Shown here piece after piece: positions 982 to 23,036 of a stretch of DNA of 32,144 bases. Below the pieces are notes generated by a model, which was not told the DNA's origin, made no database searches, and saw only the letters and a list, made by a program, of their open reading frames with translations. A program made the position numbers and the translations under genes. The stretch is from Vulcanimicrobiota bacterium (GTDB lineage: Bacteria; Vulcanimicrobiota; Vulcanimicrobiia; Vulcanimicrobiales; Vulcanimicrobiaceae): positions 1-32,144 of the forward strand of contig JABEUX010000004.1 in NCBI GenBank assembly GCA_013044185.1. Direction: 5' to 3'. Position 1 is the first letter of the stretch; each line of letters opens with the position of its first letter.

Positions 982-2463
982 CTATCCCGCGATCTTCTCG
1001 GCGAGGTGCACGAATGCGCGCACGGGCGTACCGGTCGGGCCCTTCGCCGACCATGCCGTCTCGCCGTCGACGTACGCCGTACCGGCGACATCGAGATGGA
1101 TCCACGGCGTCTTGTCGACGAAGACTTTTAAGAACGCCGCGGCGGTGAGCGTGCCAGCAGGGCGCCCGCCGGTGTTTTTGAGATCGGCGATATCGCTCTT
1201 CATCGCGTTGCTGTAGTCGTCGTAGAGCGGCATGCGCCAGTACCGTTCGCCGCAGTCCTTCGCCGCATCGAGAAAGAGCGATGCGAAGGCATCGTCATTA
1301 CTCACCGCGGCGCTCGCGGCGTGGCCGAGTGCGATGACGCAGGCACCGGTGAGCGTTGCGGCATCGACGATCTGCGTCGCTTTGAGCGAGCGGGCATAGA
1401 CCAGCGCATCGGCGAGGACGAGCCGGCCTTCGGCATCGGTGTTGATGACTTCGATCGTCGTGCCGTTGCTCGCACGGACGATATCGCCGGGCTTCGTGGC
1501 CTTCCCACCCGGCATATTTTCAGTTGCGGGAACGATGCCGACGACGTTGAGTTTCGGTTTGAGTGCGGCAATCGCTCCCATTGCAGCGATCACGCCGGCG
1601 CCGCCGGACATATCGTATTTCATCTCTTCCATCTTCTCGGGGGGCTTGAGCGAGATGCCGCCGGTATCGAAGGTGATGCCTTTCCCGACGAGTGCGAGCA
1701 ATTGCTCGCTACCGGGCGCACCACGGTAATGCATGACGATGAAGGCGGGCGGCTGCGCGCTGCCCTGCGCGACGGAGAGGAAGGAGCCCATCTTATTCTT
1801 CGCGGCCCAGGCGGCATCGTGGACTTCAATCTCCATGCCGTGCGCCTTGGCGACCGCTCTCGCTTCGGCGGCGAGATGCGTCGGCGTCATATCGTTCGCC
1901 GGCGTCAGCGCCAAGCGACGCGCAAGATTGACCGCTTCGCCGATGGCGACGCCGCGCTTCAGCCCGCGGCCGATCGCTTCGGCATTGAATCCGTGAGAGA
2001 GGAGGAGAACCTCGCCGACGGCGATCGCGCGTTCGGGAGCGCTCTGGTAGGTCGTCGTCTCGAAGCTGCCGGCGATCGCTCCTTCGGCGGCGAACGAGGC
2101 GCAGCGCTCTTCGTCGCCGGCGGCCTGCTGCGGAAATGCGATTGCGAGTTTGGTCGCGCCACGTTTGCCGAGTGCGCGAACAGCGCTCCCTGCGACCTTT
2201 GCGAGTACCGATGGGCTGAAGGTTGCGGCATCGCCGAGGCCGACGAGGAGGACGCGCTTGAAGGGGTGCGCCGCCGCGTGCAACAGCGTGCTCTCTCCGA
2301 TCTTTCCTTTGAACTCACCCGAGGCGAGAATATCGGCGATCGCCCCGCCGAGGAGGGTATCGAGCTCTTTTGCGACTCCGGCGAGCGGACTCTCCGAGGG
2401 AATCGGCACGGCAATCGCGCATGGCAGCGAACCGAGAGCATCAGATGATTGAAGAACGTGCAT
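982..2463 (-). CDS. pepA: Leucyl aminopeptidase (M17 family)
   Basis: VGKGITFDTGGISLKP, NTDAEGRLVLADAL and DAATLTGA motifs; start at MHVLQSS. Confidence 0.95.
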   Translation of the reverse strand: MHVLQSSDALGSLPCAIAVPIPSESPLAGVAKELDTLLGGAIADILASGEFKGKIGESTLLHAAAHPFKRVLLVGLGDAATFSPSVLAKVAGSAVRALGKRGATKLAIAFPQQAAGDEERCASFAAEGAIAGSFETTTYQSAPERAIAVGEVLLLSHGFNAEAIGRGLKRGVAIGEAVNLARRLALTPANDMTPTHLAAEARAVAKAHGMEIEVHDAAWAAKNKMGSFLSVAQGSAQPPAFIVMHYRGAPGSEQLLALVGKGITFDTGGISLKPPEKMEEMKYDMSGGAGVIAAMGAIAALKPKLNVVGIVPATENMPGGKATKPGDIVRASNGTTIEVINTDAEGRLVLADALVYARSLKATQIVDAATLTGACVIALGHAASAAVSNDDAFASLFLDAAKDCGERYWRMPLYDDYSNAMKSDIADLKNTGGRPAGTLTAAAFLKVFVDKTPWIHLDVAGTAYVDGETAWSAKGPTGTPVRAFVHLAEKIAG

Positions 2464-2563
2464 GGTCAACCTTTCCCGTGGGTGAAGAAGGCGAGGTGAA
2501 AACGCCTTCCGTTGAACCCAACTTTCCGTCGTCGGGCTGCGATGCCCTTGCGGAGCTCCGCCG

Positions 2564-3595
2564 ATGAGCGAGAGCAAGGATGCCTACGCGCTCGCGGGCG
2601 TCGATATCGCCGCTGGGAACGCGGCGGTCGCTCAGTACCGCGAGGTCCTCGGGCGCTGGCAGCACCCCGACCAACTCGACGCGATCGGTGGTTTCGGCGG
2701 CCTCTTTGCGATGCCGGGGGACGCGGCGCGCGCGTTGGTCGCGTCGACCGACGGGGTCGGCACCAAAATACTCATCGCCGCCGAGTTGCAGCGCTACGAT
2801 GGGGTCGGGCGCGACCTCGTCAACCACTGCGTGAACGATATACTCGTCGTGAACGCATCGCCGCTCTTCTTTCTCGATTACTATGCGGTCGGAAAACTCG
2901 ATCCCGAGATCGCCGCGGCGGTGGTGCGCGGCTGTGCGAACGCCTGTCGCGCGCATGGCTGCGCCTTGCTCGGTGGTGAGACCGCCGAGATGCCCGGGCT
3001 CTACGCACCGGGGCACTTCGACCTCGCCGGAACGATCGTCGGTGTCGTCGATCGCGCTGCGGTTCCCAATCCTGCAAGCGTCGAACCCGGCGACGCGGTC
3101 ATCGGTCTCCCCGCCGTCGGCTTACACACGAATGGCTACTCGCTCGCACGTGCGCTCATTCCACACGAACAATGGCTGCAACCGTTCGGCGATGCAACCT
3201 ACGCCGATGCGTTGCTCGCCGAGCACCCATCGTATTACGATGCCGTGCGCGCGATTCAAAAAGTCGCATCGGTGAAGGTGATGGCGCATATTACCGGCGG
3301 CGGATTGCTGGAAAATCTGCCGCGAACGTTGCGCCCCGGAGTAAAGGCCGTACTCGAACAATCGCGCTGGTCGGTTCCCGCGATACAACAAGTCTTAGTC
3401 GATCGTGGTGGGCTCACGCACGAAGAGCGGTATCGCACGCTCAATATGGGCATCGGCTACACGTTGGTCGTCCCGGTCGAGGATGCGGCGCGCGCCGTCG
3501 CTGCGGCGCCGGGGGCGACGACGATCGGTTGGATCGAAGCGCGAACGGGAGAAGAAGCGCAGGTGACGATCCATCCGGCGCGCAGCACCGATTGA
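2564..3595 (+). CDS. purM: Phosphoribosylformylglycinamidine cyclo-ligase (AIR synthetase)
   Basis: STDGVGTKILIA, GLHTNGYSLAR, HITGGGLLENLPR and NMGIGY motifs. Confidence 0.95.
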   Translation: MSESKDAYALAGVDIAAGNAAVAQYREVLGRWQHPDQLDAIGGFGGLFAMPGDAARALVASTDGVGTKILIAAELQRYDGVGRDLVNHCVNDILVVNASPLFFLDYYAVGKLDPEIAAAVVRGCANACRAHGCALLGGETAEMPGLYAPGHFDLAGTIVGVVDRAAVPNPASVEPGDAVIGLPAVGLHTNGYSLARALIPHEQWLQPFGDATYADALLAEHPSYYDAVRAIQKVASVKVMAHITGGGLLENLPRTLRPGVKAVLEQSRWSVPAIQQVLVDRGGLTHEERYRTLNMGIGYTLVVPVEDAARAVAAAPGATTIGWIEARTGEEAQVTIHPARSTD

Positions 3596-4740
3596 GAGCG
3601 CTCGCCAACCTCGTCGTCGATCTTCGCAGCGATTCGTTCGACCGAGAGTTCGCCGCCGAAGTGCGACGGCGATTGGAGGCCCGAGGCCTGCAGATCGAAG
3701 AACGAGAGCGCGACGATGCGCTCTGCGCGTGGATCGATGTTGCTTTCGGCGGAGGCTGGAGCGGCGAGGCGTATCGTTCGAAGAATCTCGTACTCTCGCG
3801 GGACGGGCAACGGCGCGCCTTCGTCTCGCTCGCCGCACAAGGATTGCGCTACGCCTGGTTACGCAACGAGGGAGCGCGCCCCGGTACCGGTATTTTCGGC
3901 CCGATCGGCGTAGCCGCCGATTCGCGTAGCGATGGGATCGGTGCCGACCTCGCGCTCGTAGGGTGTGCGCGACTGCGCGAACTCGGGTACGAACGCGCGC
4001 TCATTCCGGCGGTTGGCGGCCTGCAGCTCGAACGCTTTTACGAGCGTGCGCTCGGCGCGCGCGTTGTCGAACGCATCGACCCTATGCGGTGGTGGGAACC
4101 CCGCGCGCGCGTCGTTGCAATGGCGTCGGGAAACGGGAGCAATTTGCAGGCGTTGCTCGATGCGATCTCGCGTAACGAGTTGCCGATCGACCTCGCGGCG
4201 GTGGTGGTGAATCGTGGCGATGCGGGCGCCGCGGAGCGCGCTCGCGCGGCGGGCGTGCGACACGTCGAAAAAACGATATGGCTCCGCGCTTCGGAATCGC
4301 GGGCGAGCTACGACGCGCGGTTATTGGCGAGCGTCGATCGCTTGGAACCCGAAGGTGTGGTGTTGCTCGGTTGGATGCATCTGCTCGATGCAAAATTTGT
4401 CGCGCGCTTTCCCGAACTCCTCAATCTGCATCCCGCCTATCTGCCGCACGATCCGCGCGCCGATTCGGTGACGCTGCCCGATGGGAGTTCGATTCCGGCC
4501 TTTCGCGGCGCGCACGCGATTCGCGATGCGCTCGCGGCGGGCAGTGCCTGGGTCGGCGCGAGCGTGCACCGCGTTAGCGCGGATACCGATCGCGGCGAGG
4601 TGCTGCTTCGGCGCCCGCTCGTCTCCGAGGGACGCAGCGAAAGCGAGCTCGCTTCCGCGTTACGCCCGATCGAACACCGCATCACCGTCGAGGCGATACG
4701 GTTGTGGTGCTTTATGCGCGAACGCATTCGCGTGGTGTAG
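3592..4740 (+). CDS. purN: Two-domain protein: N-terminal GNAT-like acetyltransferase fused to phosphoribosylglycinamide formyltransferase (PurN-like)
   Basis: Likely TTG start at 3592 overlapping the purM TGA (TTGA). N-terminal part has GIFGPIGVAADSRSDGIGADLAL...LGYERALIPAVGG..FYERALGARVV (GNAT-like); from about 4102 ARVVAMASGNGSNLQALLDAI...LLNLHPAYLP...FRGAHAIRDAL...GASVHRVSADTDRGEVLLRR (PurN). Confidence 0.85.
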   Translation: MRALANLVVDLRSDSFDREFAAEVRRRLEARGLQIEERERDDALCAWIDVAFGGGWSGEAYRSKNLVLSRDGQRRAFVSLAAQGLRYAWLRNEGARPGTGIFGPIGVAADSRSDGIGADLALVGCARLRELGYERALIPAVGGLQLERFYERALGARVVERIDPMRWWEPRARVVAMASGNGSNLQALLDAISRNELPIDLAAVVVNRGDAGAAERARAAGVRHVEKTIWLRASESRASYDARLLASVDRLEPEGVVLLGWMHLLDAKFVARFPELLNLHPAYLPHDPRADSVTLPDGSSIPAFRGAHAIRDALAAGSAWVGASVHRVSADTDRGEVLLRRPLVSEGRSESELASALRPIEHRITVEAIRLWCFMRERIRVV

Positions 4741-8891: not shown

Positions 8892-9854
8892 TTATTGCGT
8901 CGTCGCTCCAGTGGGTACAATGTTGTACCGCATATGTCGCGTAAGCAGTTGGGCGAGCGCTGCGTCCTCGGCGAGGAAGGCATCGTGGCCGTGATCGCTG
9001 CGAAACTCAAGATAGCCAGCGTCGATTCCCGCGCATGCGATGCGTTCGGCGGCATCGCGCACTTCGCGCGCCGGGAAGAGCGTGTCCGAGGAGATGCCCA
9101 CAAACGTGAGTGGCGGCGTCCTTTCCGGCCACCGTGCCTCGCTCAGATCGAAGGAATCCATCGCATGCGTGAGCGTGCGATAGGTCTCGGCGTCGATGCG
9201 CTCGATGAGTTTCGCCGCCTGTGCATCGAGGAAGCCCTCCACATCGAAGCCCGTTCGACCGTTGCGGTCGGGGCGACGTCCATGTCGTCGCGAGAGCAGG
9301 GCATCGCTTTTGTACGACAGCATGGCGATCTTGCGGGCCAATCCGAGCCCGGCGATGGGATCGAGCGCGAGTGCATCGCGTTGAATCGTATTGAACGCGA
9401 TCGCGGTCGTCCCGGTGCGATCCGGCGCGCCGATTACGATGGCGCGGCCGATGCGCTCGGGAGCGTCGTGCGCCCACTGGAGCGCCTGCATGCCGCCCAT
9501 CGATCCGCCGATCGCGAGATCGATCCGTTCGATGCCGAGGCGGTCGAGTGCGCGCCGTTGCGCGCGCACGATATCGGCGATGGTGATGCGCTCGCGCGTC
9601 TGCGTCGATCCGTAACAGGAGCCGAGCATATTGATGCCGACGATGCAGTGCTCGCGGGGATCGAGGAGTGCGCCCTCGCCGACGATTCCCGGCCACCATG
9701 CTGCGGCGCGATGATCGCCGGTGAGCGCGTGGAGAACGAGCGCGACGCGCCCGCAGTTCGGATCGCCGTAGATCGCGACGCGCTGCTCGACGGCGGGCAG
9801 TATCTGCCCGCCGTCGAGCTCGAGTGCGCCGATCGCTATCGTCCGTTCGGTCAC
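8892..9854 (-). CDS. metX: Homoserine O-acyltransferase (MetX family)
   Basis: [28 protein letters not shown] and DHGHDAFL motifs of alpha/beta-hydrolase MetX. Confidence 0.95.
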
Positions 9855-11146
9855 GATCCTAGAGCGCCCGCGAGGTCGGCGATGATATCCTCAATATCTT
9901 CGATGCCGACGGAGAGCCGAATCGTACTCTCGGTAACTCCGCTCGCCAACCGTTCTTGCGGCCGCAACTGTCGGTGCGTCGTCGAAGCGGGGTGGATCGC
10001 GAGCGACTTTGCGTCACCGACATTGGCGAGCAGCGAGAAGAGCTGCAAGCGATCGATCGCCGCGCGAGCTTCAGCCTCGCCGCCGCGCACGTCGAAGGTA
10101 ACGATCGCTCCCGCACCCTTCGGAAGATAGCGTCGAGCGAGCGGATGCTGAGGATCGCTTTCCAGGCCGGGGTAGCGCACCGAGGCGACGCGGGGATGTT
10201 CGGCGAGATACTCGGCAACCTTGGTGGCGTTGGCGACATGCCGTTCGATGCGCACTCCTAGGGTTTCGAGCCCTTGTAATAGCAGCCAGGCATTAAATGG
10301 GGAGAGTGCGGCGCCGATATCGCGCAGCAGCTGCACGCGCGCCTTCACGATATATGCCGCCGCTCCGAATGCGGCGGCGTATTCGATATCGTTGTAGGTC
10401 GGGTCGGGATTCGTAAACTCCGAGTGGCGTGAGCTCTCTGCCCAATCGAAGCGGCCGCCGTCGACGATGATTCCGCCGATCGCTACGCCGTGTCCGCCGA
10501 TAAATTTCGTCGCCGAATGGACGACGATATCGGCGCCGTACTCGATCGGCCGTAGCAGGTACGGCGTCGCAAGCGTGTTGTCGACGATGAGCGGTAGCGA
10601 ATGGCGGTGAGCGATTTCTGCGACGCTGGAGATGTCGAGCACGTCCAGGCGCGGATTGCCGATACTCTCGCCGTAGAGCGCTTTTGTCGTTGGGCGAATC
10701 GCCGCCTCGATCGCAGCGAGATCGGAGAAATCGACGAGCGATACGGTGATACCGAATCGCTGCAGCGTATGTGCGAATGCGTTATAGGTGCCGCCGTAGA
10801 GCGAGGCGGAGCTGACGATATGGTCGCCGGCTCCGGCGAGATTGAGGATGGAGTAGATCGCCGCAGCTTGGCCGCTCGCGACGGCGAGCGCGCCGACGCC
10901 GCCTTCGAGTTCGGCGATGCGTTTTTCTAAAACGTCGGTGGTGGGATTATTGATACGGGTGTAAATATTGCCAAACTCTTCGAGCCCGAAGAGTCGTCCG
11001 GCGTGTGCGGTGTCGTCGAAGCGATAGGAGGTGGTCTGATAGATCGGGAGCGCGCGGGATTTGGTGGTCGGATCGCCGTCGAAGGCGGCGTGAAGGGCGA
11101 GCGTGTTAAGGCCCCGAGATCGGGTCTCTTGGGTGGTTACGGACAT
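9851..11146 (-). CDS. metY: O-acetylhomoserine sulfhydrylase / PLP-dependent Cys/Met metabolism enzyme
   Basis: [34 protein letters not shown] and RLSVGIED motifs. Confidence 0.95.
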
Positions 11147-11161
11147 GAGATGGTCCTTTCG

Positions 11162-12271
11162 TTAGCGTGCCGACGATGAGTGCGCAGCATCGAGCTGCGT
11201 CGCCGGAGATGTGAGGAATCCATCGTTCCAGATGGCGAGCGTGTCGGGAAAGATCGGGCGAATGTCGAGAATCGGCGTGAAGCCATCGATGCGATCGTTG
11301 CGCTGCGTGCGGGCGACGATGCCACGCAGCACGTCGGCGATATCGCCGAGAATCGCGCTTGAAGTTGCGGGGCGCCCCGCGCCGACGCCGCGGAGGTAGA
11401 GCTCGCCGGCGTCACGCGCGCGTAATAGAACGCCGTTCTGCGCGCCCTCAAGCGCGCCGAGTGGATGATCGCGAGGAACGAGCGCCGGAGCGACCTCCGC
11501 TGCGATGCCGTCCTCATCGCGTCGTGCCGCTGCGAGGAGTTTCATGCGGTAGCCGCGCTTCCTATAGCGGCGCAACGCATCGCCGTCGATGCCGCGAATG
11601 CCGCGATATCGCAGGCGCGGCGTAATCGCGGCGGCGCCGAAGGCTCGTTGAACGAGAATGGCGAGTTTATGCGCGCTATCGACGCCGTCGATATCCTCGC
11701 TGGGATCGGCTTCGGCGAAGCCGGCGCGTTGTGCGTCGGCGAGCGCTTCTTCGAAGCTTCCACCCTGCTCCATCGCGCTAAGGATGGCGTTGCACGTGCC
11801 GTTGAGGACGCCGACGAAGCTCTCGATGGGATCGCCCGCGAGTGCCTCGTCGATCGTTCGCAGAATCGGGAGCGCGCCGCCGACCGCCGCTTCGTATCGC
11901 AGGCTCAAGCCGCGCCGCGCCGCGAGAGCATGAAGCCGTGGGCCCTGCGAACCGATCAGCGCCTTGTTCGCAGTAACGACGTGGCAACCGCGTTCGAGCG
12001 CACGCTCGACGAACTCCGCAGCGAGCGTCGTCCCGCCCATCGTCTCGACGACGAGATCGATACGATGATCTGCGAGCAGAGCGTTCGCCGAATCGATGAG
12101 CAAGGAGCGTGGGATTCCCTCGGCACGAGCGGTAGCGAGCGAGCGCACGGCAATGGCGTGGACGGTATGGTCGACGCCGTAGACGTGCGGCTCTTTTGCG
12201 AGTAAGCGCTGGGCGACGCCGCCGCCGACGACGCCGCAGCCGAGAATACCGATTCCGATTGATGCTTGCAT
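11162..12271 (-). CDS. hom: Homoserine dehydrogenase (369 aa; no evident C-terminal ACT domain)
   Basis: GILGCGVVGGGVAQRL, VTANKALI, GVLNGTCNAIL and DPSEDIDGVDSAHKLAIL motifs. Confidence 0.95.
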   Translation of the reverse strand: MQASIGIGILGCGVVGGGVAQRLLAKEPHVYGVDHTVHAIAVRSLATARAEGIPRSLLIDSANALLADHRIDLVVETMGGTTLAAEFVERALERGCHVVTANKALIGSQGPRLHALAARRGLSLRYEAAVGGALPILRTIDEALAGDPIESFVGVLNGTCNAILSAMEQGGSFEEALADAQRAGFAEADPSEDIDGVDSAHKLAILVQRAFGAAAITPRLRYRGIRGIDGDALRRYRKRGYRMKLLAAARRDEDGIAAEVAPALVPRDHPLGALEGAQNGVLLRARDAGELYLRGVGAGRPATSSAILGDIADVLRGIVARTQRNDRIDGFTPILDIRPIFPDTLAIWNDGFLTSPATQLDAAHSSSAR

Positions 12272-12317
12272 GGGTCTGCCTCCTGGTGAGATGAGGAAAG
12301 CGACTGAGGAAATGAAA

Positions 12318-12347
12318 GCGCCCCCGTCGCTGCTGCGACGGGGGCGC
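12318..12347 (-). terminator. Terminator-like hairpin in the hom leader (candidate attenuator)
   Basis: Perfect 13-bp stem GCGCCCCCGTCGC-AGCA-GCGACGGGGGCGC followed on the - strand by TTTCATTT, about 46 nt before the hom ATG. Confidence 0.6.
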
Positions 12348-12540
12348 CTAGGTCGATGGTGAGCGCCGAGCGCTCTACGTCATCGCAAATGGCAACCTCG
12401 CCGTCGCGCGCTTGGCGGAACAGCAAGTGGACATTCGCGAGGCGAACGAGATCATGGCGTGCATAGTACCCCATGCCCACGGATCCGTCAAGCGAGGAGT
12501 TGTCGTTAACGAAATCGTGACGCATGCCGACCTCACGATT
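12348..12540 (-). ncRNA. Candidate structured 5' leader of hom-metY-metX
   Basis: Upstream of the hairpin the - strand can form CGATG..GAGCGC-TCG-GCGCTC..CATCG and CCTCGC..GCGAGG helices; no recognised riboswitch consensus. Confidence 0.3.
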
Positions 12541-12625
12541 CGAAGGTGATGCTTAAATGCTCGGCAATATCGCGGAGACGCTGTGCCGTTGGGTGCGGCC
12601 GTACTGGAAAGGTATGTGGACACGG

Positions 12626-12778
12626 ATGAGTATCTCCTCGATTACCTCCGCTTCGGTAGGGGTACAGAGCGCCGTCAAGTCGCTCGTTACGACGCAACAG
12701 GAAGCGCAGTCGGAGGCGACTGCCGGCATTAAAGATGGTGACGAAAACGTCGGCACCAACGTCAACCAGACCGCATAG
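12626..12778 (+). CDS. Putative 50-aa small protein
   Basis: ORF MSISSITSASVGVQSAVKSLVTTQQEAQSEATAGIKDGDENVGTNVNQTA*; followed 20 nt later by a strong + strand terminator. Confidence 0.45.
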   Translation: MSISSITSASVGVQSAVKSLVTTQQEAQSEATAGIKDGDENVGTNVNQTA

Positions 12779-12798
12779 CGCACCTTCTACGGTTGCCG

Positions 12799-12837
12799 GG
12801 GACGCGGGCGTTACAAACGTGCGCGTCCCTTTTATTT
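12799..12837 (+). terminator. Intrinsic terminator downstream of the small + ORF
   Basis: GGGACGCG (12799-12806) / CGCGTCCC (12822-12829) with inner CGT/ACG pairing, followed by TTTTATTT. Confidence 0.7.
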
Positions 12838-12838
12838 C

Positions 12839-13729
12839 CTACGATACAGTGCGAACGAGCAATCCCCGCGCACTCGGGCGCAGGCGCAGCGTTGCGCTCG
12901 CGATCCCGGCATCGGTAAAGCGCGCCCGCAACTCCTCGCCGATGCGCCGTGCGTCGGCGCGTACATCGAGCAACGCGACGACCGTTGGCCCCGCACCGGA
13001 GAGCGCAACGCCCCGCACGCCGGGCGCGTCGTAGGCGAGGAGCGCGGGCAATCCGGGAATCTTTGCGGCGCGATAGGGCTGATGGATGCGGTCGTTCATC
13101 GCCGCGCGCAGGCAATCGAGCTTGCCCGATGCGAGTGCAGCTCCGAGCAATGCGGCCCGCTGTACCGAAAACACGGTGTCGGCGCGAGAATAGCGCGCGG
13201 GGAGTAGCGAGCGCGCTGCTGCGGTCGAGAGATCGATCTGCGGAATCGTGAAGAGCGCGATCGTATCGCGTAGCGGCGGCAAGCGCACGACGTTGCGCGC
13301 GTCGCACGCGATGGTGGTGCCTCCATAGAGGGCGGCGAGGGCGTTATCGGGATGCCCCTCGAGTTTGCACGCGAGCGCGGCGATCCGCGAGCGGTCGATG
13401 CGATTCCCCGCCGCTCGTTCTGCGATGCCAAGCGCGAGTATCGTCGCGGCGGCGCTCGATCCCAACCCGGCCCCGAGCGGAATGGCGTTGGTAATATCGA
13501 TGCGGATGCACGGAAGAGCGCCGATGCTATGCATCGCACGCTCGATCGCCTCGCGCAATCCGTCGTGCGTCGGCGCCTGCGGCCCCGGAGCGAAATGCAA
13601 CGCGAATCGACGCGCCGGTGCGACCGTCGCTTGCATGCGCAGCGCGAGCGCTATACCGACCGAATCGAAACCAGGGCCGAGGTTCGCGCTGCTCGCCGGT
13701 GTGCTTACCTGAAAGCTATGCGTCGGCAT
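12839..13729 (-). CDS. thrB: Homoserine kinase
   Basis: TPASSANLGPGFDSVGIAL and IPLGAGLGSSAAATI GHMP-kinase motifs. Confidence 0.95.
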   Translation of the reverse strand: MPTHSFQVSTPASSANLGPGFDSVGIALALRMQATVAPARRFALHFAPGPQAPTHDGLREAIERAMHSIGALPCIRIDITNAIPLGAGLGSSAAATILALGIAERAAGNRIDRSRIAALACKLEGHPDNALAALYGGTTIACDARNVVRLPPLRDTIALFTIPQIDLSTAAARSLLPARYSRADTVFSVQRAALLGAALASGKLDCLRAAMNDRIHQPYRAAKIPGLPALLAYDAPGVRGVALSGAGPTVVALLDVRADARRIGEELRARFTDAGIASATLRLRPSARGLLVRTVS

Positions 13730-14924
13730 CGCGACGATCTGCGACGCGCAGGCTCGCGTCGCTATCTTTGAGCACGTGCCCGGTCAATACCGCGACGATA
13801 TCGTCGTGCTCGCCGATCGTGCCCTCGGCGCGTAGCCGCACGATCCCGGCGAGCGTCGCCGCGGAGGCCGGTTCGCAGCCGATCCCGGCCGCGCCGATCC
13901 GTCCCTTCGCTTCGTCGATCTCGTCGTCGCTCACGGCGATTGCGGCTCCCTGCGATGCGTCGAGCTCCGCGCGCGCCTTCCGCCACGATCTCGGCGCACC
14001 GACCGCGATCGCGCTTGCAATCGTATGCGGGGCGATCGGCACGAGGTCGGCGCCGGAGCGATAGAGCTCGACAAAGGGTGCAGCGCCCTCGGCTTGCACG
14101 ACGGCGATGCGCGGGAGACGGTCGATCAGCCCGAGCGCGCGTGCTTCGCGAAATCCCTTGCCAATCGCGCTGGAGTTCCCGAGATTTCCCCCGGGTACGA
14201 CGACCCAATCGGGAACGCGCCATGAGCGCGCTTCGAGGATGGCAAACGCGGTGCATTTTTGCCCTTCGAGCCGATAGGGGTTGATCGAATTCACGACGGC
14301 GGCGCCATCGCCCGAGCGCGAAGTGAGTTCGGCGAGCGCATCGTCGAACGAGCCCTCCACTTCGACGACGCGTACTCCGTAATCGCGCATCTGCGCGAGT
14401 TTTGCCCCGGAGATTTTACCGCGTGGAACCAACGCATAGGCCTCCATGCCGGCACGTGCGGCGTACGCCGCCATCGAGGAGGCCGTATTCCCGGTGCTCG
14501 CACAGATCGCACGCGTTGCGCCCTCGGCGCGGGCGGCCGAGATGGCGACGGTCATCCCGAGATCTTTGAACGAACCCGTTGGGTTCATCCCGAGGTGCAA
14601 AAACGCGAGTGCGGCGATGCGTTCGCGCGCGGCGATCTCCGGCACGTCGTAGAGCGGCACGTTTCCTTCGGCGAGCGTGACGACCGACGCATGCGGAATC
14701 GGCGGCAGTAACTCGCGCCAGCGCCAGATGCCGCTACGATCGAGCGGATCGTTGCTCGCGCGGCGACGGGCGACCATCGCTGCATACTCGCGTGCTGCCG
14801 GTGCATCGGGTGCATCGGCTTGCAATGCAAACTCGAGCAGCTCGCCGCAGGCAACGCAGGGGAGATCGTGACGCTGGGCGGGTGCGTTACAGGTGCTGCA
14901 GCGCAATTCGTAGCGCGCGATCAT
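13716..14924 (-). CDS. thrC: Threonine synthase
   Basis: LRCSTCNAPA zinc-ribbon-like N-terminus, LHLGMNPTGSFKDLGM and STGNTASSMAAYAARAG motifs; ATGA overlap with tsaD. Confidence 0.95.
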   Translation of the reverse strand: MIARYELRCSTCNAPAQRHDLPCVACGELLEFALQADAPDAPAAREYAAMVARRRASNDPLDRSGIWRWRELLPPIPHASVVTLAEGNVPLYDVPEIAARERIAALAFLHLGMNPTGSFKDLGMTVAISAARAEGATRAICASTGNTASSMAAYAARAGMEAYALVPRGKISGAKLAQMRDYGVRVVEVEGSFDDALAELTSRSGDGAAVVNSINPYRLEGQKCTAFAILEARSWRVPDWVVVPGGNLGNSSAIGKGFREARALGLIDRLPRIAVVQAEGAAPFVELYRSGADLVPIAPHTIASAIAVGAPRSWRKARAELDASQGAAIAVSDDEIDEAKGRIGAAGIGCEPASAATLAGIVRLRAEGTIGEHDDIVAVLTGHVLKDSDASLRVADRRDADA

Positions 14925-15940
14925 GCTGCGTTCCCGATGCGTTCGAATGGAAGGTTGGGATCGGCGGCGAGATGGAGGGGATCGACGCGGACTGCCTCGC
15001 CCTGCGCCTCGGCGGCGGCGGCGATCATCGCGGCGTTGTCGGTGCAGTAGGCGAGCGATGGAACGAAAAGTTCGATGCCGTTCCGCTGCGCCCACGCCCG
15101 CAACGATGCCTGTAACAACGAGTTTGCCGCAACGCCGCCGGAGAGCGCGACGGCGCGAAACGATCCGCGCGCAAACGCCGCCGCGACGCGAGCCACGAGC
15201 ACCTCGACGACCGCCGCCTGAAAACTCGCGGCGACATCTTCGCGGCGAACGCCTGCGTTCTCGGGGCGTTCGAGAAAGTAGCGAACCGATGTCTTTAACC
15301 CCGAAAACGAAAAATCGAGAGCATCGCCCTCGGGGCGATAGCGCGGGAAGGCGATCGCGCGCGCGTCGCCGTCGCGGGCGAGCGCATCGAGTGCCGGCCC
15401 ACCGGGAAAACCCAGGCCGAGGAGGCGCGCGGTTTTATCGAAGGCTTCGCCGGCGGCATCGTCCCGCGTTTTCCCGAGGACGCGTAGTTGCATCGCTCCG
15501 TCGACGGCGACGAGTTGCGTGTGCCCTCCGGAGACCAACAATGCGAGAAACGGATAGGGCGGCGCTTCACTGCGCGAAAGAAAGGGCGCGAAGAGATGCC
15601 CGTGCAGATGGTTGACGGCATAGAGCGGGCGTCGCGCGGCGAAGGCCAGCGCCTTTGCGGTTGCCACCCCGACGAGAAGGCTGCCGATCAGCCCCGGACC
15701 GTAGGTGACCGCGATACCGTCGCATCGATCGAGCGTTATCTGTGCGCGATCCAGCGTGTGTTCGACCGCCGCGGAGAGCAGCGCGAGGTGCGCCCGGCTC
15801 GCAATCTCCGGCACGATGCCGCCATACGCACGATGAAACTCATCCTGGTTCGTCGAGACGTTCGCGAGCACGTCGCGTCCGTCGCGGACGATGGCGACGG
15901 CGGTGTCGTCACAGGAGGTTTCGATTCCCAGCAGCAGCAT
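14921..15940 (-). CDS. tsaD: tRNA N6-adenosine threonylcarbamoyltransferase
   Basis: GIETSCDDTAVAIV, YGPGLIGSLLVG, NHLHGHLF and SGGVAANS motifs. Confidence 0.97.
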   Translation of the reverse strand: MLLLGIETSCDDTAVAIVRDGRDVLANVSTNQDEFHRAYGGIVPEIASRAHLALLSAAVEHTLDRAQITLDRCDGIAVTYGPGLIGSLLVGVATAKALAFAARRPLYAVNHLHGHLFAPFLSRSEAPPYPFLALLVSGGHTQLVAVDGAMQLRVLGKTRDDAAGEAFDKTARLLGLGFPGGPALDALARDGDARAIAFPRYRPEGDALDFSFSGLKTSVRYFLERPENAGVRREDVAASFQAAVVEVLVARVAAAFARGSFRAVALSGGVAANSLLQASLRAWAQRNGIELFVPSLAYCTDNAAMIAAAAEAQGEAVRVDPLHLAADPNLPFERIGNAA

Positions 15941-15976
15941 CGTCGCTAGGTTGGCGCTCGGCTCGCTCCTCTCCGC

Positions 15977-16786
15977 TTACGCGATGATGCTCGCATCGTG
16001 ACGATCGCGCGCGGCACGCAACGCGCCGGGGCCGGCGAGGCAGATGTAGGCCGCCTCCGCGCCGCCCTCGCGAGCAGCAATTGCGGCACGAAGTTTCGGG
16101 CGCATGCCGTCGCGGCACTCGTCGCTATCGAGAAACGCACGAGCGCTCTCCGGCGAAAAGCGGTCGATTCCGCTGCCGGGGTCGCTTGCAACCGCGCGCA
16201 CGCGGGTGATATCGGTGACGAAGAAGAGCGCGCTCGCTCGCAGCGTAGCGGCGACCGCAGCGGCGGCTTCGTCGGCGTTGACGTTGAGTGCCGCCGCTCG
16301 GTCGATCTCGAGTGCGAGCGGCGCGAGCACCGGGATCGCCGGCATCGCGAGAATCGCCGAAAGCAGACGCGGATCGCAGATGACCCGCTCGCCGACGGCG
16401 CCGAGCCGCCCCTCGAAACGCGTACTCCGTCGCGCCTGCAACGTTCCGTCATCTTCACCGGAGATGCCGACGGCGCGCGCGCCGCGCGCGCGTAATGCTC
16501 GGACGATCCGCTTGTTGATCGTCGCGCAGAGCAGCATTTCAACGACGGCGAGGCTCCGTTCGTCGGTCGCGCGCAGGCCGTCGATCCGCTCGCCCTCGAT
16601 CGAGCGCTCGCGGAGAGCCTCGTCGATCTCCGGGCCGCCCCCGTGGACGAGCACGATGCGCTCGCCGGCGGCATGGAGGGCGGCGATCTCGTCGAGGAGG
16701 GGGTCGCTCGGCTCCGCCCCTGGGCGAGTGCTTCCACCGTATTTCACCACCGAGATCCTCGGGGGTATTGCATATTTATGCGTCAT
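15977..16786 (-). CDS. argB: Acetylglutamate kinase (start uncertain: 16816, 16786 or GTG 16750)
   Basis: VVKYGGS, VLVHGGGPEIDEAL, LNVNADEAAAAVA and FVTDI motifs; GTG at 16750 has GAGG upstream and would leave the ARG boxes intergenic. Confidence 0.92.
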   Translation of the reverse strand: MTHKYAIPPRISVVKYGGSTRPGAEPSDPLLDEIAALHAAGERIVLVHGGGPEIDEALRERSIEGERIDGLRATDERSLAVVEMLLCATINKRIVRALRARGARAVGISGEDDGTLQARRSTRFEGRLGAVGERVICDPRLLSAILAMPAIPVLAPLALEIDRAAALNVNADEAAAAVAATLRASALFFVTDITRVRAVASDPGSGIDRFSPESARAFLDSDECRDGMRPKLRAAIAAREGGAEAAYICLAGPGALRAARDRHDASIIA

Positions 16787-16801
16787 ATGCATAATAATAC
16801 A
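16769..16801. promoter_or_regulatory. Pair of ARG-box-like operators between divergent argB and argF
   Basis: TGCAT-ATTT-ATGCG (16769-16782) and TGCAT-AATA-ATACA (16788-16801), AT-rich in a GC-rich context, resembling ArgR/AhrC ARG boxes; argR is encoded in the same operon. Confidence 0.75.
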
Positions 16802-16805
16802 CATA

Positions 16806-17783
16806 ATGATCGCCACAAGGCTAGCCCCTCACCTCCGTTTGCAGGGGCGGCACTTCCTCGACCTCGCCGAGTTGCTCCCCGCGGAGTTTCTCGCCCTCAT
16901 GCGTCTGGCGCGCGAGCTCAAAAGCGATGCCTCGGTCGCAACCCGTGCCCTCTTGCGCGGACGCACCTTGGCGATGCTCTTCGAAAAACCGAGCCTGCGG
17001 ACGCGCGTCTCCTTCGAGGTCGCCGTAACCTCGCTCGGCGGCCAGGCACTCTTCGCAACCGGCAGCGAGATGCTCCTCGGCACGCGCGAATCCCCCGAAG
17101 ACGCGGCGCGAGTGCTCTCCCGCTACGTCGATGCCGTGGTCGTTCGCACGCACGAACACGAGCCGCTCGAACGCTTCGCCGCCGCCGCGAGCGTCCCGGT
17201 CATCAACGGGCTCTCCGCGCTCTATCATCCGTGCCAGGCCTTCGCCGATGCGTTGACGATGGAAGAGCGCTTCGGTTCGCTCGAAGGTTTGCGCGTCGTC
17301 TATCTCGGCGATGCTCGAAATAATGTCGCCACATCGCTCGCGCAGGCGGTCGTCATGCTCGGCGGTTCGATGCGCTTTGCCTCGCCCTTAAGCCATCGGC
17401 CGAGCGAAGCGACGCTCGAACGGCTCGCAGAGCTCGGTGCGAGCAGCGGTGGTCGCGCGCGTGCATTTACCGATCCCGTGCGCGCGCTCCGCGGCGCCGA
17501 CGTCGTCTATACCGATGTTTGGACCTCGATGGGCGAGGAGCACTTGCACGAACGCAATGCAGCGATGCTGTTACCGTACGCGGTAACCGAACACTCCTTC
17601 GCCTACACGGCGCCGCACGCCGTCTTCATGCATTGCTTGCCCGCGCACCGCGGACAAGAAGTCGCAGCCGCCGTCATCGACGGCTCGCGCAGCCTGGTCT
17701 TCGACCAAGCTGAAAATCGTCTCCACGCGCAACGGGCGTTGCTCGTCGCGCTGATCACCGATGGGAAGGGAACATCATTATGA
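16806..17783 (+). CDS. argF: Ornithine carbamoyltransferase
   Basis: FEKPSLRTRVSFEVAVTSLGG, NGLSALYHPCQAFADALT and FMHCLPAHRGQEV motifs. Confidence 0.95.
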   Translation: MIATRLAPHLRLQGRHFLDLAELLPAEFLALMRLARELKSDASVATRALLRGRTLAMLFEKPSLRTRVSFEVAVTSLGGQALFATGSEMLLGTRESPEDAARVLSRYVDAVVVRTHEHEPLERFAAAASVPVINGLSALYHPCQAFADALTMEERFGSLEGLRVVYLGDARNNVATSLAQAVVMLGGSMRFASPLSHRPSEATLERLAELGASSGGRARAFTDPVRALRGADVVYTDVWTSMGEEHLHERNAAMLLPYAVTEHSFAYTAPHAVFMHCLPAHRGQEVAAAVIDGSRSLVFDQAENRLHAQRALLVALITDGKGTSL

Positions 17784-18253
17784 AGGAGCGTCGTCAACGC
17801 GCGATTCTCACGTTGGTTGCAACGCGACCGATTCATTCGCAGGAAGAGCTCGTCGCGCTTCTTGCCGCGCAGGGTTTTGATGCCGTCCAAGCGACCGTTT
17901 CGCGCGATATCAAAGAGCTCGGGCTGGTGAAGGTGCCGGTGAAGAGCGAGCGTGGCGATGAAGCGCTCTTTAAATACATGCTTCCGAATGCGACGGTTCA
18001 GTACGCCAGTCGCCTCCATCGGGTCGTTGCCGAACTCGTTCTCGCCGTCGAAGGGAGCGCGAACCTCATCGTGCTCAAAACGCCGCCGGGGAGCGCGATG
18101 ATGGTCGCCTCGGCGATCGACGATGCCGGTTGGCCCGAGATTCTCGGAACGATCGGCGGCGACGACACGATTCTCGTCATCGTGCGCGATGCGAAAACGA
18201 TGCCGATGATCGTCCAGCGCTTTCGCGATCTCGGCGCGGAGGGCGAGGCGTGA
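17780..18253 (+). CDS. argR: Arginine repressor ArgR
   Basis: RRQRAILTLVATRPIHSQEELVALLAAQGFDAVQATVSRDIKELGLVKVP and C-terminal GTIGGDDTILVI. Confidence 0.95.
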   Translation: MKERRQRAILTLVATRPIHSQEELVALLAAQGFDAVQATVSRDIKELGLVKVPVKSERGDEALFKYMLPNATVQYASRLHRVVAELVLAVEGSANLIVLKTPPGSAMMVASAIDDAGWPEILGTIGGDDTILVIVRDAKTMPMIVQRFRDLGAEGEA

Positions 18254-19464
18254 GTACGATCGTTCTTGCGTATTCGGGAGGGCTCGATACCTCGGTTCTG
18301 CTCAAACGTCTCCTGCTCGAAGGGAACGATGTGATCGCACTCACCGCCGATCTCGGTGAGAGCGACGCTGCGACCGGCGATGCAGCCGCAGCTGCAATCG
18401 GGGCGATCTCGGCGAAGGCACGCGCGCTCGGAGCGCGCGATGCGGTCGCGCTCGACGTACGCGAACGCTTCTTTCACGAGTACGTTCTGCCGGCATTCGC
18501 TGCGAACGTACGCTATGAAGGTTGTTATCCGCTCAGCGCCGCGCTCTCGCGCCCACTGATCGCAGCGTTGCTCGTCGAAACCGCGCGCGCATACGGCGCC
18601 GACGCGGTCGCGCATGGTTGCACGGGGAAAGGGAACGATCAGGTGCGGATCGAGTTGGGGGTGCGTGCGCTCGATCCAAATCTCACGGTGCGCGCGCCGC
18701 TCCGCGAATCCCCGCTTTCGCGCCCCGATGCGATTACGTTTGCCGCCGAACACGGCATTCCAATCGCACAGAGCGCGGCGAAACCCTATTCGATCGACGC
18801 GAATCTCTGGGGGCGCTCCATCGAAGCGGGCGTTCTCGAAGATCCGTGGGTCGCACCGCCCGAGGATGCATTTGGTTGGACCGCTTCACCGCAGGATCGC
18901 CCCAGCACGGCAGAAGAGATCGTCGTGCTCTTTCGCGAGGGCGTTCCGCTCGTTGCGGGGATCTCGGGGGCGCCGTTACTCGCTCGGCTCAACGCGCTCG
19001 GCGGAATGCATGGCATCGGTCGGATCGATCTTATCGAGGACCGAGTGATCGGTTTGAAATCGCGCGAGCTCTACGAGGCTCCGGCCGCGACGATCTTACT
19101 CGCCGCACGCGAAGCGCTCGAACGGCTCGTCCTCACGCGCGACGAACTGCGTTTTAAGGCCGGGGTCGACCGCAAATACGGAGAGCTCGTCTACGATGGG
19201 CTCTGGCATTCTCCGTTGCGTGCGGCCTTCGACGCATTCAATGCCGTTTCGAGCGTACGACTCTCCGGTGAGGTTCGCGTGCGTCTCTATCAGGGTAGCG
19301 CAACGGTCGTCGGCGTTCGTTCGCCGTTCGCGTTGTACGATGAAGGCTTGGCAACCTACGGAGCCGGCGATCGTTTCGACCACCATGCTGCCGATGGGTT
19401 CATCCACCTGGCGGGGCTGCCGCTCGATCGTTTGGCGCAGGTTGCGGCGGTCACCGCAGGGTGA
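18250..19464 (+). CDS. argG: Argininosuccinate synthase
   Basis: GTG start overlapping the argR stop; VLAYSGGLDTSVLLKRL, GCTGKGNDQVRIE and KSRELYEAPAA. Confidence 0.97.
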   Translation: MSTIVLAYSGGLDTSVLLKRLLLEGNDVIALTADLGESDAATGDAAAAAIGAISAKARALGARDAVALDVRERFFHEYVLPAFAANVRYEGCYPLSAALSRPLIAALLVETARAYGADAVAHGCTGKGNDQVRIELGVRALDPNLTVRAPLRESPLSRPDAITFAAEHGIPIAQSAAKPYSIDANLWGRSIEAGVLEDPWVAPPEDAFGWTASPQDRPSTAEEIVVLFREGVPLVAGISGAPLLARLNALGGMHGIGRIDLIEDRVIGLKSRELYEAPAATILLAAREALERLVLTRDELRFKAGVDRKYGELVYDGLWHSPLRAAFDAFNAVSSVRLSGEVRVRLYQGSATVVGVRSPFALYDEGLATYGAGDRFDHHAADGFIHLAGLPLDRLAQVAAVTAG

Positions 19465-20873
19465 GCGCGGGTTCGTTGCAATGGGGCGGTCGCTTTCACA
19501 GCGCGCCCGACCCGGCGTTGCTCGCATTCGGGTCGTCCTTTGAAGACGACCTGCTGCTCGCGCGGTTCGATCTGCAAACCTCGCAGGCGCACGTCCGTGC
19601 ATTGCTCGGGGGCGGGACGATCCCACCGGAGATCTTCGACGCGCTCGTAGCGGCGCTCGATCGCATCGCCGAGGAGATCGAGGACGGAACCTTTACCGCG
19701 TGGGCGAGGAACGGAGCCTTCGAGGATATTCATGGCGCGATCGATGCGCGCGTTCGCGAGATCGACGATGTTGCGGGGCGTTGGCTCCATGCCGGGCGGA
19801 GCCGCAACGATCAAGTCGCAACCACGTTGGCGCTCTACGCTGCATCGCGCGCGCGGGACGGCCTCGCTCGCACGACGTCGATCGCCCGCGCTCTTGCGTC
19901 GCGCGCTGCTCTCGCGCTCGAGCAAAAAAGCGTTCTCGCCGGTACGACGCACGGCCAACCCGCGCAACCAATTTTGCTCGCCTTTTGGCTGCAGGCGGCG
20001 GCCGAGCCGTTCGTTCGGAGCGCGCGACGTTTTGCGGCGCTCGCTCGCGACGCGATGGAGGCGATGCCCTTAGGTTCGGGGGCGCTCGCCGGGAGTTGCA
20101 TTCCGCTCGATCGCACCGCTGCCGCGCAGTACCTCGGTTTCGCGCGGCCCTCTCGTAATGCGCTCGATGCGGTGGGAACGCGAGATGTTCTGTTCGCGTG
20201 TGCCGATGCGTGGGCGACGAGTTGCGTGCCCGCCGCGCGCGTCGCTGCAGAGATCGTTACCTGGGCCTCTCCGCACTTCGGCTACGTTCGCGTCGGCGAC
20301 GCATCGGCGAGCGGCTCGAGTTTGATGCCGCAGAAGCGGAATCCCGATATCTTCGAGCTCGTGCGCGCCGGTACCCAGCGCGCGTTATCCGACGCACGTG
20401 CTGCCTGGGCTGCGAGCGCCGCCGTTCCGCTTTCGTATCACCGCGATCTCCAAGAGTGCAAGCAGAGCGCGATCGCGGCGATCGAACGCGCCGATTCGAT
20501 TCTTACCGCCTTCGCGCGCGCCTTTGCGGATATCGAATTCGATGTGGAGCGGATGGAACGGCAGGCAACCACCGGCTATACACTCGCGACCGATCATGCC
20601 GATGCGCTCGTCCGCGGCGGTCTCGATGCGCGGCGAGCGCATCGTTTGGTCGGCGAACGGGTCGCTATCGCCGAAGCGCAGGAACGAGCGTTCGACGCGA
20701 GCGATCTCCGTGCGCTCGGCGCGCACCTCGGCGTTCCCGCCCTCGTCGCACCACTCGACGCACGTGCGAGCGTGCTTGCGAAAGTCACCGATGGATCCAC
20801 GTCGCCCGAGGCCGTCGCTCGAGCGCTCGATGCACTCGAGTGCGAGCTCTCCGAATGCGATGCATCGGTATGA
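19461..20873 (+). CDS. argH: Argininosuccinate lyase
   Basis: WGGRFHSAPDPALLAFGSSFEDD, AGRSRNDQVATTLALY and GSSLMPQKRNPDIFELVR. Confidence 0.97.
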   Translation: MSAGSLQWGGRFHSAPDPALLAFGSSFEDDLLLARFDLQTSQAHVRALLGGGTIPPEIFDALVAALDRIAEEIEDGTFTAWARNGAFEDIHGAIDARVREIDDVAGRWLHAGRSRNDQVATTLALYAASRARDGLARTTSIARALASRAALALEQKSVLAGTTHGQPAQPILLAFWLQAAAEPFVRSARRFAALARDAMEAMPLGSGALAGSCIPLDRTAAAQYLGFARPSRNALDAVGTRDVLFACADAWATSCVPAARVAAEIVTWASPHFGYVRVGDASASGSSLMPQKRNPDIFELVRAGTQRALSDARAAWAASAAVPLSYHRDLQECKQSAIAAIERADSILTAFARAFADIEFDVERMERQATTGYTLATDHADALVRGGLDARRAHRLVGERVAIAEAQERAFDASDLRALGAHLGVPALVAPLDARASVLAKVTDGSTSPEAVARALDALECELSECDASV

Positions 20874-21838
20874 CGCGCGTACACGTGTGGGGCGCAGCGG
20901 GGTACGCTGCCGCGCAAGCGATCGAATGGATCGCCGAGCACCCACGGCTGGAGATCGGTTTGCTCGAGAGCAAGAGCCACGCGGGAGCGTTGCTCGGCGA
21001 GAGTTTTTCCGCGTTTCGTCGCAGCGATCTGCGCTTTGTGGAGAGTGGAAGCATCGCTTCCGAGCTCGCGGCGGGCGAGATCGTCCTTGCCGCCGGCGCG
21101 CACGGGCAGGGGCGCGATACGGTGGAGCGCTTTCTCGATCGCGGCGCTCGCGTCGTCGATCTCTCGGCCGACTTTCGCTTCGACGAACGCGCGGCGTACG
21201 GCCTTGCCGAATGGAACCGCGATGCGATCGCCGAGGCCGCCCTGGTCGCGAATCCCGGATGCTACCCGACGGCATCGTTGCTGCCGCTGCTGCCGTTAAC
21301 CGCAGCCTTTGCGCCGCTGGCGATCGTGATCGATGCGAAGAGCGGTATCACCGGTGCGGGGCGGACGCCTGCGCTCGGCTCGATGTTCGCCGAAGTCGAT
21401 GGAGAGATTCGCGCGTACGGGCTCTCGGGGCATCGCCATCAACCCGAGATCGAACGAGCGCTCGCAACGCGTGGTTGCGCGAGCCCACTCACCTTTACCC
21501 CACACGTCGTTCCGCTCTCCCGAGGCATGCTCGCGGATATCTATCTCGTGCTCGATCGCGCTCCCGATCCGCATGCGGTCGAATCCGTGTTGCAGGATGC
21601 CTATCGCGCGTCGCCATTCGTACGGATCCTCGAACGGGGAGGCGCGCCGAGCGTCGCTGCCGTCGTCGGTACGAATGACGCCGAGATTTCCGTCGACCTC
21701 TGCGGCAAGACGATTCGCGCGATCTGCGCGATCGATAATCTCGGCAAAGGCGCCGCCGGCCAGGCGCTTCAGAACATCAACATCATGCTTGGATATCCCC
21801 AAGAGGAGGGCTTTCATGCTCGCAGCGTCGCAGCCTGA
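20870..21838 (+). CDS. argC: N-acetyl-gamma-glutamyl-phosphate reductase
   Basis: GAAGYAAAQAIEW, LSADFRF, NPGCYPTASLLPL and KSGITGAGR. Confidence 0.95.
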   Translation: MTRVHVWGAAGYAAAQAIEWIAEHPRLEIGLLESKSHAGALLGESFSAFRRSDLRFVESGSIASELAAGEIVLAAGAHGQGRDTVERFLDRGARVVDLSADFRFDERAAYGLAEWNRDAIAEAALVANPGCYPTASLLPLLPLTAAFAPLAIVIDAKSGITGAGRTPALGSMFAEVDGEIRAYGLSGHRHQPEIERALATRGCASPLTFTPHVVPLSRGMLADIYLVLDRAPDPHAVESVLQDAYRASPFVRILERGGAPSVAAVVGTNDAEISVDLCGKTIRAICAIDNLGKGAAGQALQNINIMLGYPQEEGFHARSVAA

Positions 21839-23036
21839 ACTTCAAGATCGCATCGTCGCGCTGCGCGGAGGGATCGGGAGCGTGCCCGGCCTCCGCGTGA
21901 GCGGCGTCCATGCCGGCATCAAACGGCGCAAACGCGACCTTGCTTTGATCGTCTTCGACCGAGAGCAAGCGTGCGCTGCGGTCGTTACCACCAACGACGT
22001 CAAAGCGGCACCGATTACCGTTAGCAGCGAGCACCTCGCGTCGGGTATGGGTGTGCGTGCGTTGGTCTGTAATTCGGGCTGCGCGAATGCTTGCACCGGC
22101 GAACGCGGCGATCGCGACGCGCGCGCGACGGCCGCACAAGCCGCAGCGTTGCTCGATATAGCGCCGCAACAAGTCATCGTTGCGTCCACCGGGGTTATCG
22201 GCGTGCCGTTGCCGCTCGACCGGGTCCAGCGCGGCCTCGAACGCTGCGTCGACCAACTCGATGAAGGCTTAAAGGCGGCGCACGATGCCGCCGAGGCGAT
22301 CATGACCACCGATCGCGTGCCGAAACTTTCGGCATACGCGTTCTACCACGATGCAAAGCGCTACACGATCGGCGGTATCGCTAAGGGCTCGGGAATGATC
22401 GCTCCGAATATGGCGACGATGCTGGCGTTTCTCGCGACGGATTTCCCCGTCGCGCAGGGAGAGTTGCAGCGCTCGCTCGCGGCGGCAGTGGACGGAACCT
22501 TCAATATGATCTCGGTCGATGGTGATATGTCGACCAACGACGCCGTCTATCTCTGCGCGCCTCAAGGGACCCAACCTCTTCCTGCGATCTTCGAACAGGT
22601 CTTAGGAAAAGTCGCGCTCGATCTCGCGCTGGCGATGGTCGACGATGGTGAGGGTGCGACCAAGCGCTTGGAGGTACGTATCGTCGGTGCGCGCGATTCA
22701 GGCCAAGCACGTACGGTTGCGCGAGCAATCGTCAATTCGAGTTTGGTGAAGACCGCACTCTACGGCGAAGATCCGAATTGGGGAAGAATCATTGCTGCAG
22801 CTGGCGCGGCGCGGATCGGCTTGGAACCGCATGTGTGGTCGCTCGCACTGAACGATCGCTGTTGGGTCGAGCGCGGAGGTATAGAAACACTCTCCGAGGC
22901 TGAGGCTCACCGGGAGTTAGAGGAGCGCGAGATCGTCGTAACGCTCGATCTCGGTCTCGGCGACGCGATTGCAACGGCGTGGGGATGCGATCTTTCGCGC
23001 GACTACGTCCGTATCAACGCGAGTTATCGCACGTGA
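21816..23036 (+). CDS. argJ: Bifunctional glutamate N-acetyltransferase/amino-acid acetyltransferase
   Basis: AGGAGGG RBS; VCNSGCANACTG and IAKGSGMIAPNMATMLAFLATD (autoprocessing region). Confidence 0.95.
   Translation: MLAASQPELQDRIVALRGGIGSVPGLRVSGVHAGIKRRKRDLALIVFDREQACAAVVTTNDVKAAPITVSSEHLASGMGVRALVCNSGCANACTGERGDRDARATAAQAAALLDIAPQQVIVASTGVIGVPLPLDRVQRGLERCVDQLDEGLKAAHDAAEAIMTTDRVPKLSAYAFYHDAKRYTIGGIAKGSGMIAPNMATMLAFLATDFPVAQGELQRSLAAAVDGTFNMISVDGDMSTNDAVYLCAPQGTQPLPAIFEQVLGKVALDLALAMVDDGEGATKRLEVRIVGARDSGQARTVARAIVNSSLVKTALYGEDPNWGRIIAAAGAARIGLEPHVWSLALNDRCWVERGGIETLSEAEAHRELEEREIVVTLDLGLGDAIATAWGCDLSRDYVRINASYRT

What the first reader, a model, noticed from the sequence alone, without database searches (positions are those of the whole stretch)
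3592..4740. GNAT-like acetyltransferase domain fused to the N-terminus of PurN
The frame is continuous from the purM stop (TTG start within TTGA) through a GNAT-like segment (GPIGVAADSRSDGIGADL...GYERALIPAVGG..FYERALGARVV) into a full PurN-like domain. PurN is normally a stand-alone ~200-aa enzyme. Coupling an acyl-CoA-binding fold to a formyltransferase in the purine operon is an uncommon architecture and could mean allosteric sensing of acetyl-CoA or modification of a purine intermediate.
Basis: partly seen in the sequence, partly recalled or inferred. Interest (0 to 1): 0.75.

Follow-up and report, generated by a model that had tools for sequence, protein, structure and literature searches.

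The report
Acetyltransferase domain fused onto PurN
In one family of little-studied bacteria (Eremiobacterota), a purine-making enzyme carries an extra acetyltransferase domain at its front; it is a real, conserved fusion, probably two enzymes in one chain, but what the extra domain acetylates is unknown.

Summary
Window 3592-4740 (+) is one open 382-aa frame whose TTG start overlaps the purM stop. Residues 172-382 are PurN (GAR transformylase) with its catalytic Asn/His/Asp. Residues 1-164 are a GNAT domain whose closest solved relatives are the catalytic lobes of glucosamine N-acetyltransferases (GlmA 5KF1; RmNag 4ZM6). The fusion is no assembly accident: 84 of 99 genomes of the window's family have it, and the N-domain is under the same purifying selection as PurN. 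Sister families keep LAP, purM and purN without the domain and carry its relative as a separate gene elsewhere, so one relocation plus fusion at the base of the family explains the data. PurN residues are invariant in 82 of 82 fusions. The GNAT tyrosine is kept in 77; the domain is decayed in a few genomes and cleanly missing in one, so PurN does not seem to need it. Best reading: a bifunctional chain in which an independent, mostly active acetyl-CoA-dependent N-acetyltransferase shares transcript and chain with PurN. Allosteric acetyl-CoA sensing, or modification of a purine intermediate, has no positive evidence. New domain architecture made of known families; moderate interest.

The parts
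2564..3595 (+). purM (AIR synthase), immediately upstream; its stop overlaps the start of the fusion
   Evidence: PF00586 + PF02769; ORF
3592..4740 (+). GNAT-PurN fusion gene, 382 aa, TTG start
   Evidence: open frame; relatives spanning both domains in 84 genomes of the family
3592..4083 (+). N-terminal single-lobe GNAT domain (residues 1-164); AcCoA motif R112-xx-G115-x-G117 at 3925-3942; presumed catalytic Tyr150 at 4039-4041
4084..4104 (+). short linker (residues 165-171) between the two domains
   Evidence: identical in close relatives, variable across the family
4105..4737 (+). PurN / GAR transformylase domain (residues 172-382); catalytic N278, H280, D333
4447..4503 (+). 19-residue segment (residues 286-304) between HPxxLP and RG in PurN, about 17 aa longer than in E. 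coli PurN; present in fused and stand-alone PurN of the phylum
982..2577 (-). leucyl-aminopeptidase-like frame, divergent from purM (the gene itself probably starts just downstream of the frame's first start codon); conserved synteny marker (LAP / purM / purN) in families with and without the fusion
   Evidence: name from reading the translation

Best explanation
A bifunctional protein. The C-terminal half is the organism's only recognisable GAR transformylase (PurN, 10-formyl-THF dependent). The N-terminal half is a single-lobe GNAT, homologous to the catalytic C-lobe of tandem glucosamine N-acetyltransferases, that most likely transfers acetyl from acetyl-CoA to the amine of a small metabolite (amino-sugar-like or aminoacyl-like), with Tyr150 as general acid. 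It arose once, when an ancestral separate GNAT gene was moved into the purM/purN junction and fused in frame at the base of the family. In the window it is co-expressed with purM, probably by translational coupling at the TTGA overlap. The two activities are probably independent. Shown: the fusion, homology, conservation, synteny and the single clade of fused domains. Inferred: catalysis, substrate class, coupling and independence of the two activities.
For: Continuous conserved frame. Profile hits to GlmA C-lobe 5kga/5kf1 (E=5e-11), MshD 2c27 and RmNag 4zm6; Foldseek of the N-domain model to 4zm6 (TMq 0.67), 5kf1 (0.62), MprF synthase domains and MshD. The tyrosine aligned with GlmA Y297 (mutated in 5kgh) and corresponding to RmNag Y842, whose alanine mutant loses transacetylation (PMC4680927), is invariant in the 40-sequence set and kept in 77 of 82 fusions; R112 and G117 in 79 of 82 each. 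PurN N/H/D in 82 of 82. No PurT over cut-off in 99 family genomes; the only other PF00551 hit in the own genome reads as Fmt. Fused GNATs form one clade (94/97) beside the stand-alone GNATs of sister families, which keep LAP, purM and purN without the domain.
Against: The single-sequence Pfam hit is below the gathering score. GlmA Asp287 (mutated in 5kga) is replaced by Pro/Gly/Ala in the family, and the first Gly of RxxGxG is variable, so substrate or mechanism may differ. Five of 82 fusions lack the tyrosine and one genome lost the domain. No acetylation activity or substrate has been shown.
Confidence: 0.6

Rival explanations
1. Regulatory module: the GNAT domain binds acetyl-CoA (or acetylates a lysine of PurN or PurM) and so tunes purine synthesis to the acetyl-CoA supply.
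For: Fixed order with a short linker across the family and long retention of the fusion; CoA-site residues mostly conserved.
Against: A relative exists as a separate gene beside non-purine genes in sister families; clean loss in G127 and decay in G035/G125 with PurN intact; the linker is poorly conserved between genera.
Confidence: 0.17
2. The GNAT domain acts on a purine-pathway amine, e.g. the glycyl amine of GAR, which resembles the aminoacyl-amino-sugar part of mycothiol synthase's substrate; PurN and GNAT then compete for or share one substrate.
For: Homology to MshD and physical coupling to the enzyme that formylates GAR; the chemical analogy is my own inference.
Against: Separate GNAT genes in sister families sit near GH125, AstE/AspA-like, cation-efflux or aroA genes, not purine genes; acetyl-GAR has no use known to me.
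Confidence: 0.1
3. The GNAT domain is a catalytically dead relic or a folding/solubility appendage of PurN.
For: Loss of Tyr150 in 5 of 82 and loss of motif A in G035 while the domain stays; no counterpart of GlmA Asp287.
Against: dN/dS about 0.11-0.15; Tyr150, R112, G117, W56, E59 kept in more than 90% of fusions.
Confidence: 0.1
4. Two separate proteins are made (an internal start gives PurN alone), so the fusion is only on paper.
For: ATG codons at 4084 and 4120 lie at a suitable place in the window.
Against: M165 occurs only in the window's genus and M177 is Met or Leu; full-length matches run through both domains in one frame; linker residues conserved in congeners.
Confidence: 0.03

Closest known systems
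PurN, phosphoribosylglycinamide (GAR) transformylase (E. coli 1C2T/1CDE)
   Same: Whole domain, glycine loop, catalytic Asn106/His108/Asp144 equivalents (N278/H280/D333), place after purM
   Different: N-terminal GNAT fusion; 17-aa insert after HPxxLP; TIGR00639 score below the equivalog cut-off
GlmA, glucosamine N-acetyltransferase of Clostridium acetobutylicum (5KF1, 5KGA, 5KGH), C-terminal lobe
   Same: Best profile hit; W..E motif, GP(I/F)GV strand, RxxGxG-type loop, catalytic tyrosine
   Different: GlmA is a tandem of two GNAT lobes; here one lobe, and the GlmA Asp287 position is Pro/Gly/Ala; fused to PurN
RmNag GH3 N-acetylglucosaminidase-GNAT (4ZM6; PMC4680927)
   Same: A GNAT of the same kind fused to another enzyme; catalytic Tyr842 corresponds to Tyr150; best TM-score among the listed hits of the N-domain model
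   Different: Fusion partner is a glycosidase; tandem GNAT; GNAT at the C-terminus
Mycothiol synthase MshD (2C27)
   Same: GNAT C-lobe homology; acetylates an amine of a sugar-linked aminoacyl substrate (from memory)
   Different: Tandem; low sequence similarity (E=3.5e-5 with a profile)
Eukaryotic GART (PurD-PurM-PurN) (from memory)
   Same: PurN as part of a fusion in the purine pathway
   Different: There the partners are purine enzymes; no GNAT

Membership tests
PurN (GAR transformylase) | Formyl_trans_N domain | tested here: met
   PF00551 97.9 bits, cut-off 26.1
PurN (GAR transformylase) | Catalytic Asn, His, Asp | tested here: met
   N278, H280, D333 in 82 of 82 fusions
PurN (GAR transformylase) | TIGR00639 equivalog cut-off (an annotation threshold, not a property of the enzyme) | tested here: not met
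   127.7 vs 150.1 bits; 1 of 99 family genomes passes; the match is split at the insert
PurN (GAR transformylase) | Purine operon context, sole copy | tested here: met
   purM directly upstream; no PurT over cut-off; other own-genome hit reads as Fmt; own genome 73% complete
PurN (GAR transformylase) | GAR formylation | not testable with these tools
   needs an assay or complementation
GNAT superfamily | GNAT fold topology | tested here: met
   AF2 N-domain model pLDDT 75; top Foldseek hits are GNAT or GNAT-like folds
GNAT superfamily | Pfam gathering score for the window protein (an annotation threshold) | tested here: not met
   PF00583 18.2 vs 20.7 bits, though 38 of 40 relatives match at E<=0.01
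GNAT superfamily | Motif A R/Q-x-x-G-x-G/A | tested here: met
   R112-S-D-G115-I-G117 in the window; R112 and G117 in 79 of 82; G115 variable
GNAT superfamily | Acetyl-CoA binding and transfer | not testable with these tools
   needs purified protein
GlmA-type glucosamine N-acetyltransferase | Tandem GNAT architecture | tested here: not met
   single lobe only
GlmA-type glucosamine N-acetyltransferase | Both Asp287 and Tyr297 (residues mutated in the solved structures) | tested here: not met
   Tyr297 equivalent present; Asp287 position is Pro/Gly/Ala
GlmA-type glucosamine N-acetyltransferase | Glucosamine acetylation | not testable with these tools
   needs an assay

The most novel reading that the evidence does not exclude
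The GNAT domain acylates GAR or another purine-pathway amine, or senses acetyl-CoA to gate PurN, giving a direct acetyl-CoA control point on de novo purine synthesis in a whole bacterial family.
Probability: 0.2. Interest if true: 0.72.

Novelty: new variant of a known kind. Interest (0 to 1): 0.42.

Why it matters
It is a family-wide architecture (dozens of genera) joining an acetyl-CoA enzyme to a folate-dependent purine enzyme, with a natural set of controls: sister families with the parts separate, genomes with a decayed GNAT, and one with a clean loss. If the activities are linked, it would be a new control point between acetyl-CoA and purine synthesis; if not, it is a well-placed case of gene relocation and fusion that can be tested in a cultured strain.

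Tried and rejected
Chance or assembly artefact: rejected. Frameshift or two genes: rejected. Conserved neighbourhood of the stand-alone GNAT as a clue to its substrate: no single context. Loci carry GH125/AstE-AspA/MFS neighbours, SecD-like/cation-efflux neighbours, or aroA/SBP_bac_5 neighbours. A GAF gene next to both the stand-alone GNAT of some f3 genomes and the fusion in three f1 genera looked like a shared ancestral pair, but the two GAF proteins are only weakly alike (29% over 91 aa) and the gene orders differ. The full-length AF2 model was poor (pLDDT 57, shallow alignment) and was used only for rough matches. Literature searches for PurN-GNAT fusions found nothing relevant. Occurrence outside the phylum could not be surveyed: the one genome-contig scan reaches close relatives only.

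Full report
Observation. Window 3592-4740 (+) is an uninterrupted frame of 382 aa that starts with a TTG overlapping the purM TGA. Pfam and NCBIfam recognise PurN from residue 173 on (PF00551 97.9 bits; TIGR00639 127.7 bits in two stretches, cut-off 150.1), and phmmer aligns it to E. coli PurN over 174-367. The N-terminal half is a sub-threshold GNAT hit on its own.

Reality of the fusion. Five congeneric relatives (L001-L005) keep the same frame, the same TTG(A) start and the same linker. N-domain dN is 0.08-0.13 with dS 0.7-1.1; PurN dN is 0.11-0.15 with dS 0.7-1.1. Residues 160-176 are identical in all five comparisons, with dS above 1 in the four where it could be calculated. In the phylum survey of 149 genomes, 84 of the 99 genomes of the window's family have a match spanning both domains, 6 have partial matches (most at contig ends) and 9 have none (my count). 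Outside that family, matches cover PurN alone or the N-domain alone.

What the N-domain is. A profile of 40 relatives finds C. acetobutylicum GlmA (5kga/5kf1, E=5e-11), mycothiol synthase (2c27) and the GNAT part of RmNag (4zm6); 38 of 40 members match PF00583. An AF2 model of residues 1-169 (pLDDT 75, pTM 0.73) matches MprF synthase domains, 4zm6 (TMq 0.67), 5kf1 (0.62) and 2c27 (0.55). It lacks the second lobe of these tandem proteins. The tyrosine mutated in 5kgh (Y297F, title) aligns with Y150; the equivalent RmNag residue Y842 is the predicted general acid, and its alanine mutant lost transacetylation (PMC4680927). The position of GlmA D287 is Pro/Gly/Ala here.

Conservation over the family. 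In 82 aligned fusion rows (the window plus relatives), PurN N278/H280/D333 are invariant; GNAT Y150 is kept in 77, R112 in 79, G117 in 79, W56 in 76, E59 in 76. Exceptions show decay of the GNAT with PurN intact (L125/G035, L121/G125). In G127 the GNAT is missing cleanly: purM is followed within a few bases by a PurN frame with a linker-like start. PurN is therefore kept without it.

Origin. LAP, purM and (GNAT-)purN lie together in the fused loci that could be read far enough; the two f2 loci and two f3 loci checked have LAP, purM and purN in the same order without the domain, although spacing differs. All four f2 genomes and ten f3 genomes have a separate single-lobe GNAT elsewhere, 33-39% identical to the fused domain. 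On the tree the fused domains form one clade (94/97), with f2 (100/99) and f3 (92/96) as separate clades. I saw no f1 genome with a further separate homologue clearly distinct from the fusion; the second match of G043 lies at a contig end and overlaps the first at 97% DNA identity. The simplest history is one relocation and fusion at the base of the family. That the f2/f3 copies are not true orthologues is not excluded.

Function. PurN is the sole recognisable GAR transformylase: the other PF00551 hit of the own genome reads as Fmt, and PurT reaches its cut-off in 0 of 99 family genomes (the lower-scoring matches are expected from other ATP-grasp enzymes). Because the GNAT stands alone in sister families next to unrelated genes (GH125, AstE/AspA-like, cation efflux, aroA) and can be lost or decay, I judge an independent small-molecule N-acetyltransferase most likely (0.6), over regulation (0.17), action on a purine intermediate (0.1) or a relic (0.1). 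None of these was tested by experiment.

Limits. Taxa outside the phylum were not surveyed for this architecture. That G118 is Vulcanimicrobium alpinum rests on its single 3,508,363-bp contig against 3.50 Mbp in PMC9758169.

Noticed in passing
L061:2345-2746 (G043), L066:1367-1765 (G045); also G040, G042, G044, G046, G047, G051, G072, G073, G107, G108: In three genera of the family a small GAF-domain gene sits between purM and the GNAT-PurN fusion (a few bases upstream of it in G073); no match in the window's genus.
   Followed up: partly
window 4447-4503; L055-L059: PurN throughout the phylum sample has a 17-aa insert after HPxxLP, in the region that is the mobile active-site loop of E. coli PurN (from memory); it is also in stand-alone PurN, so it predates the GNAT fusion.
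   Followed up: partly
L060:2560-2680 (G127): Natural clean deletion of the GNAT domain within a genus whose other members have the fusion.
   Followed up: yes
L125 (G035), L121 (G125), L120 (G089), L102 (G095), L111 (G076): Fusions that lack the presumed catalytic tyrosine of the GNAT domain while PurN residues are intact.
   Followed up: partly
window 8892-24226: Reading of the translations suggests a homoserine/threonine/methionine block (metX, metY, hom, thrB, thrC) next to an arginine block (argB, argF, argG, argH, argC, argJ, argD); names not tested.
   Followed up: no
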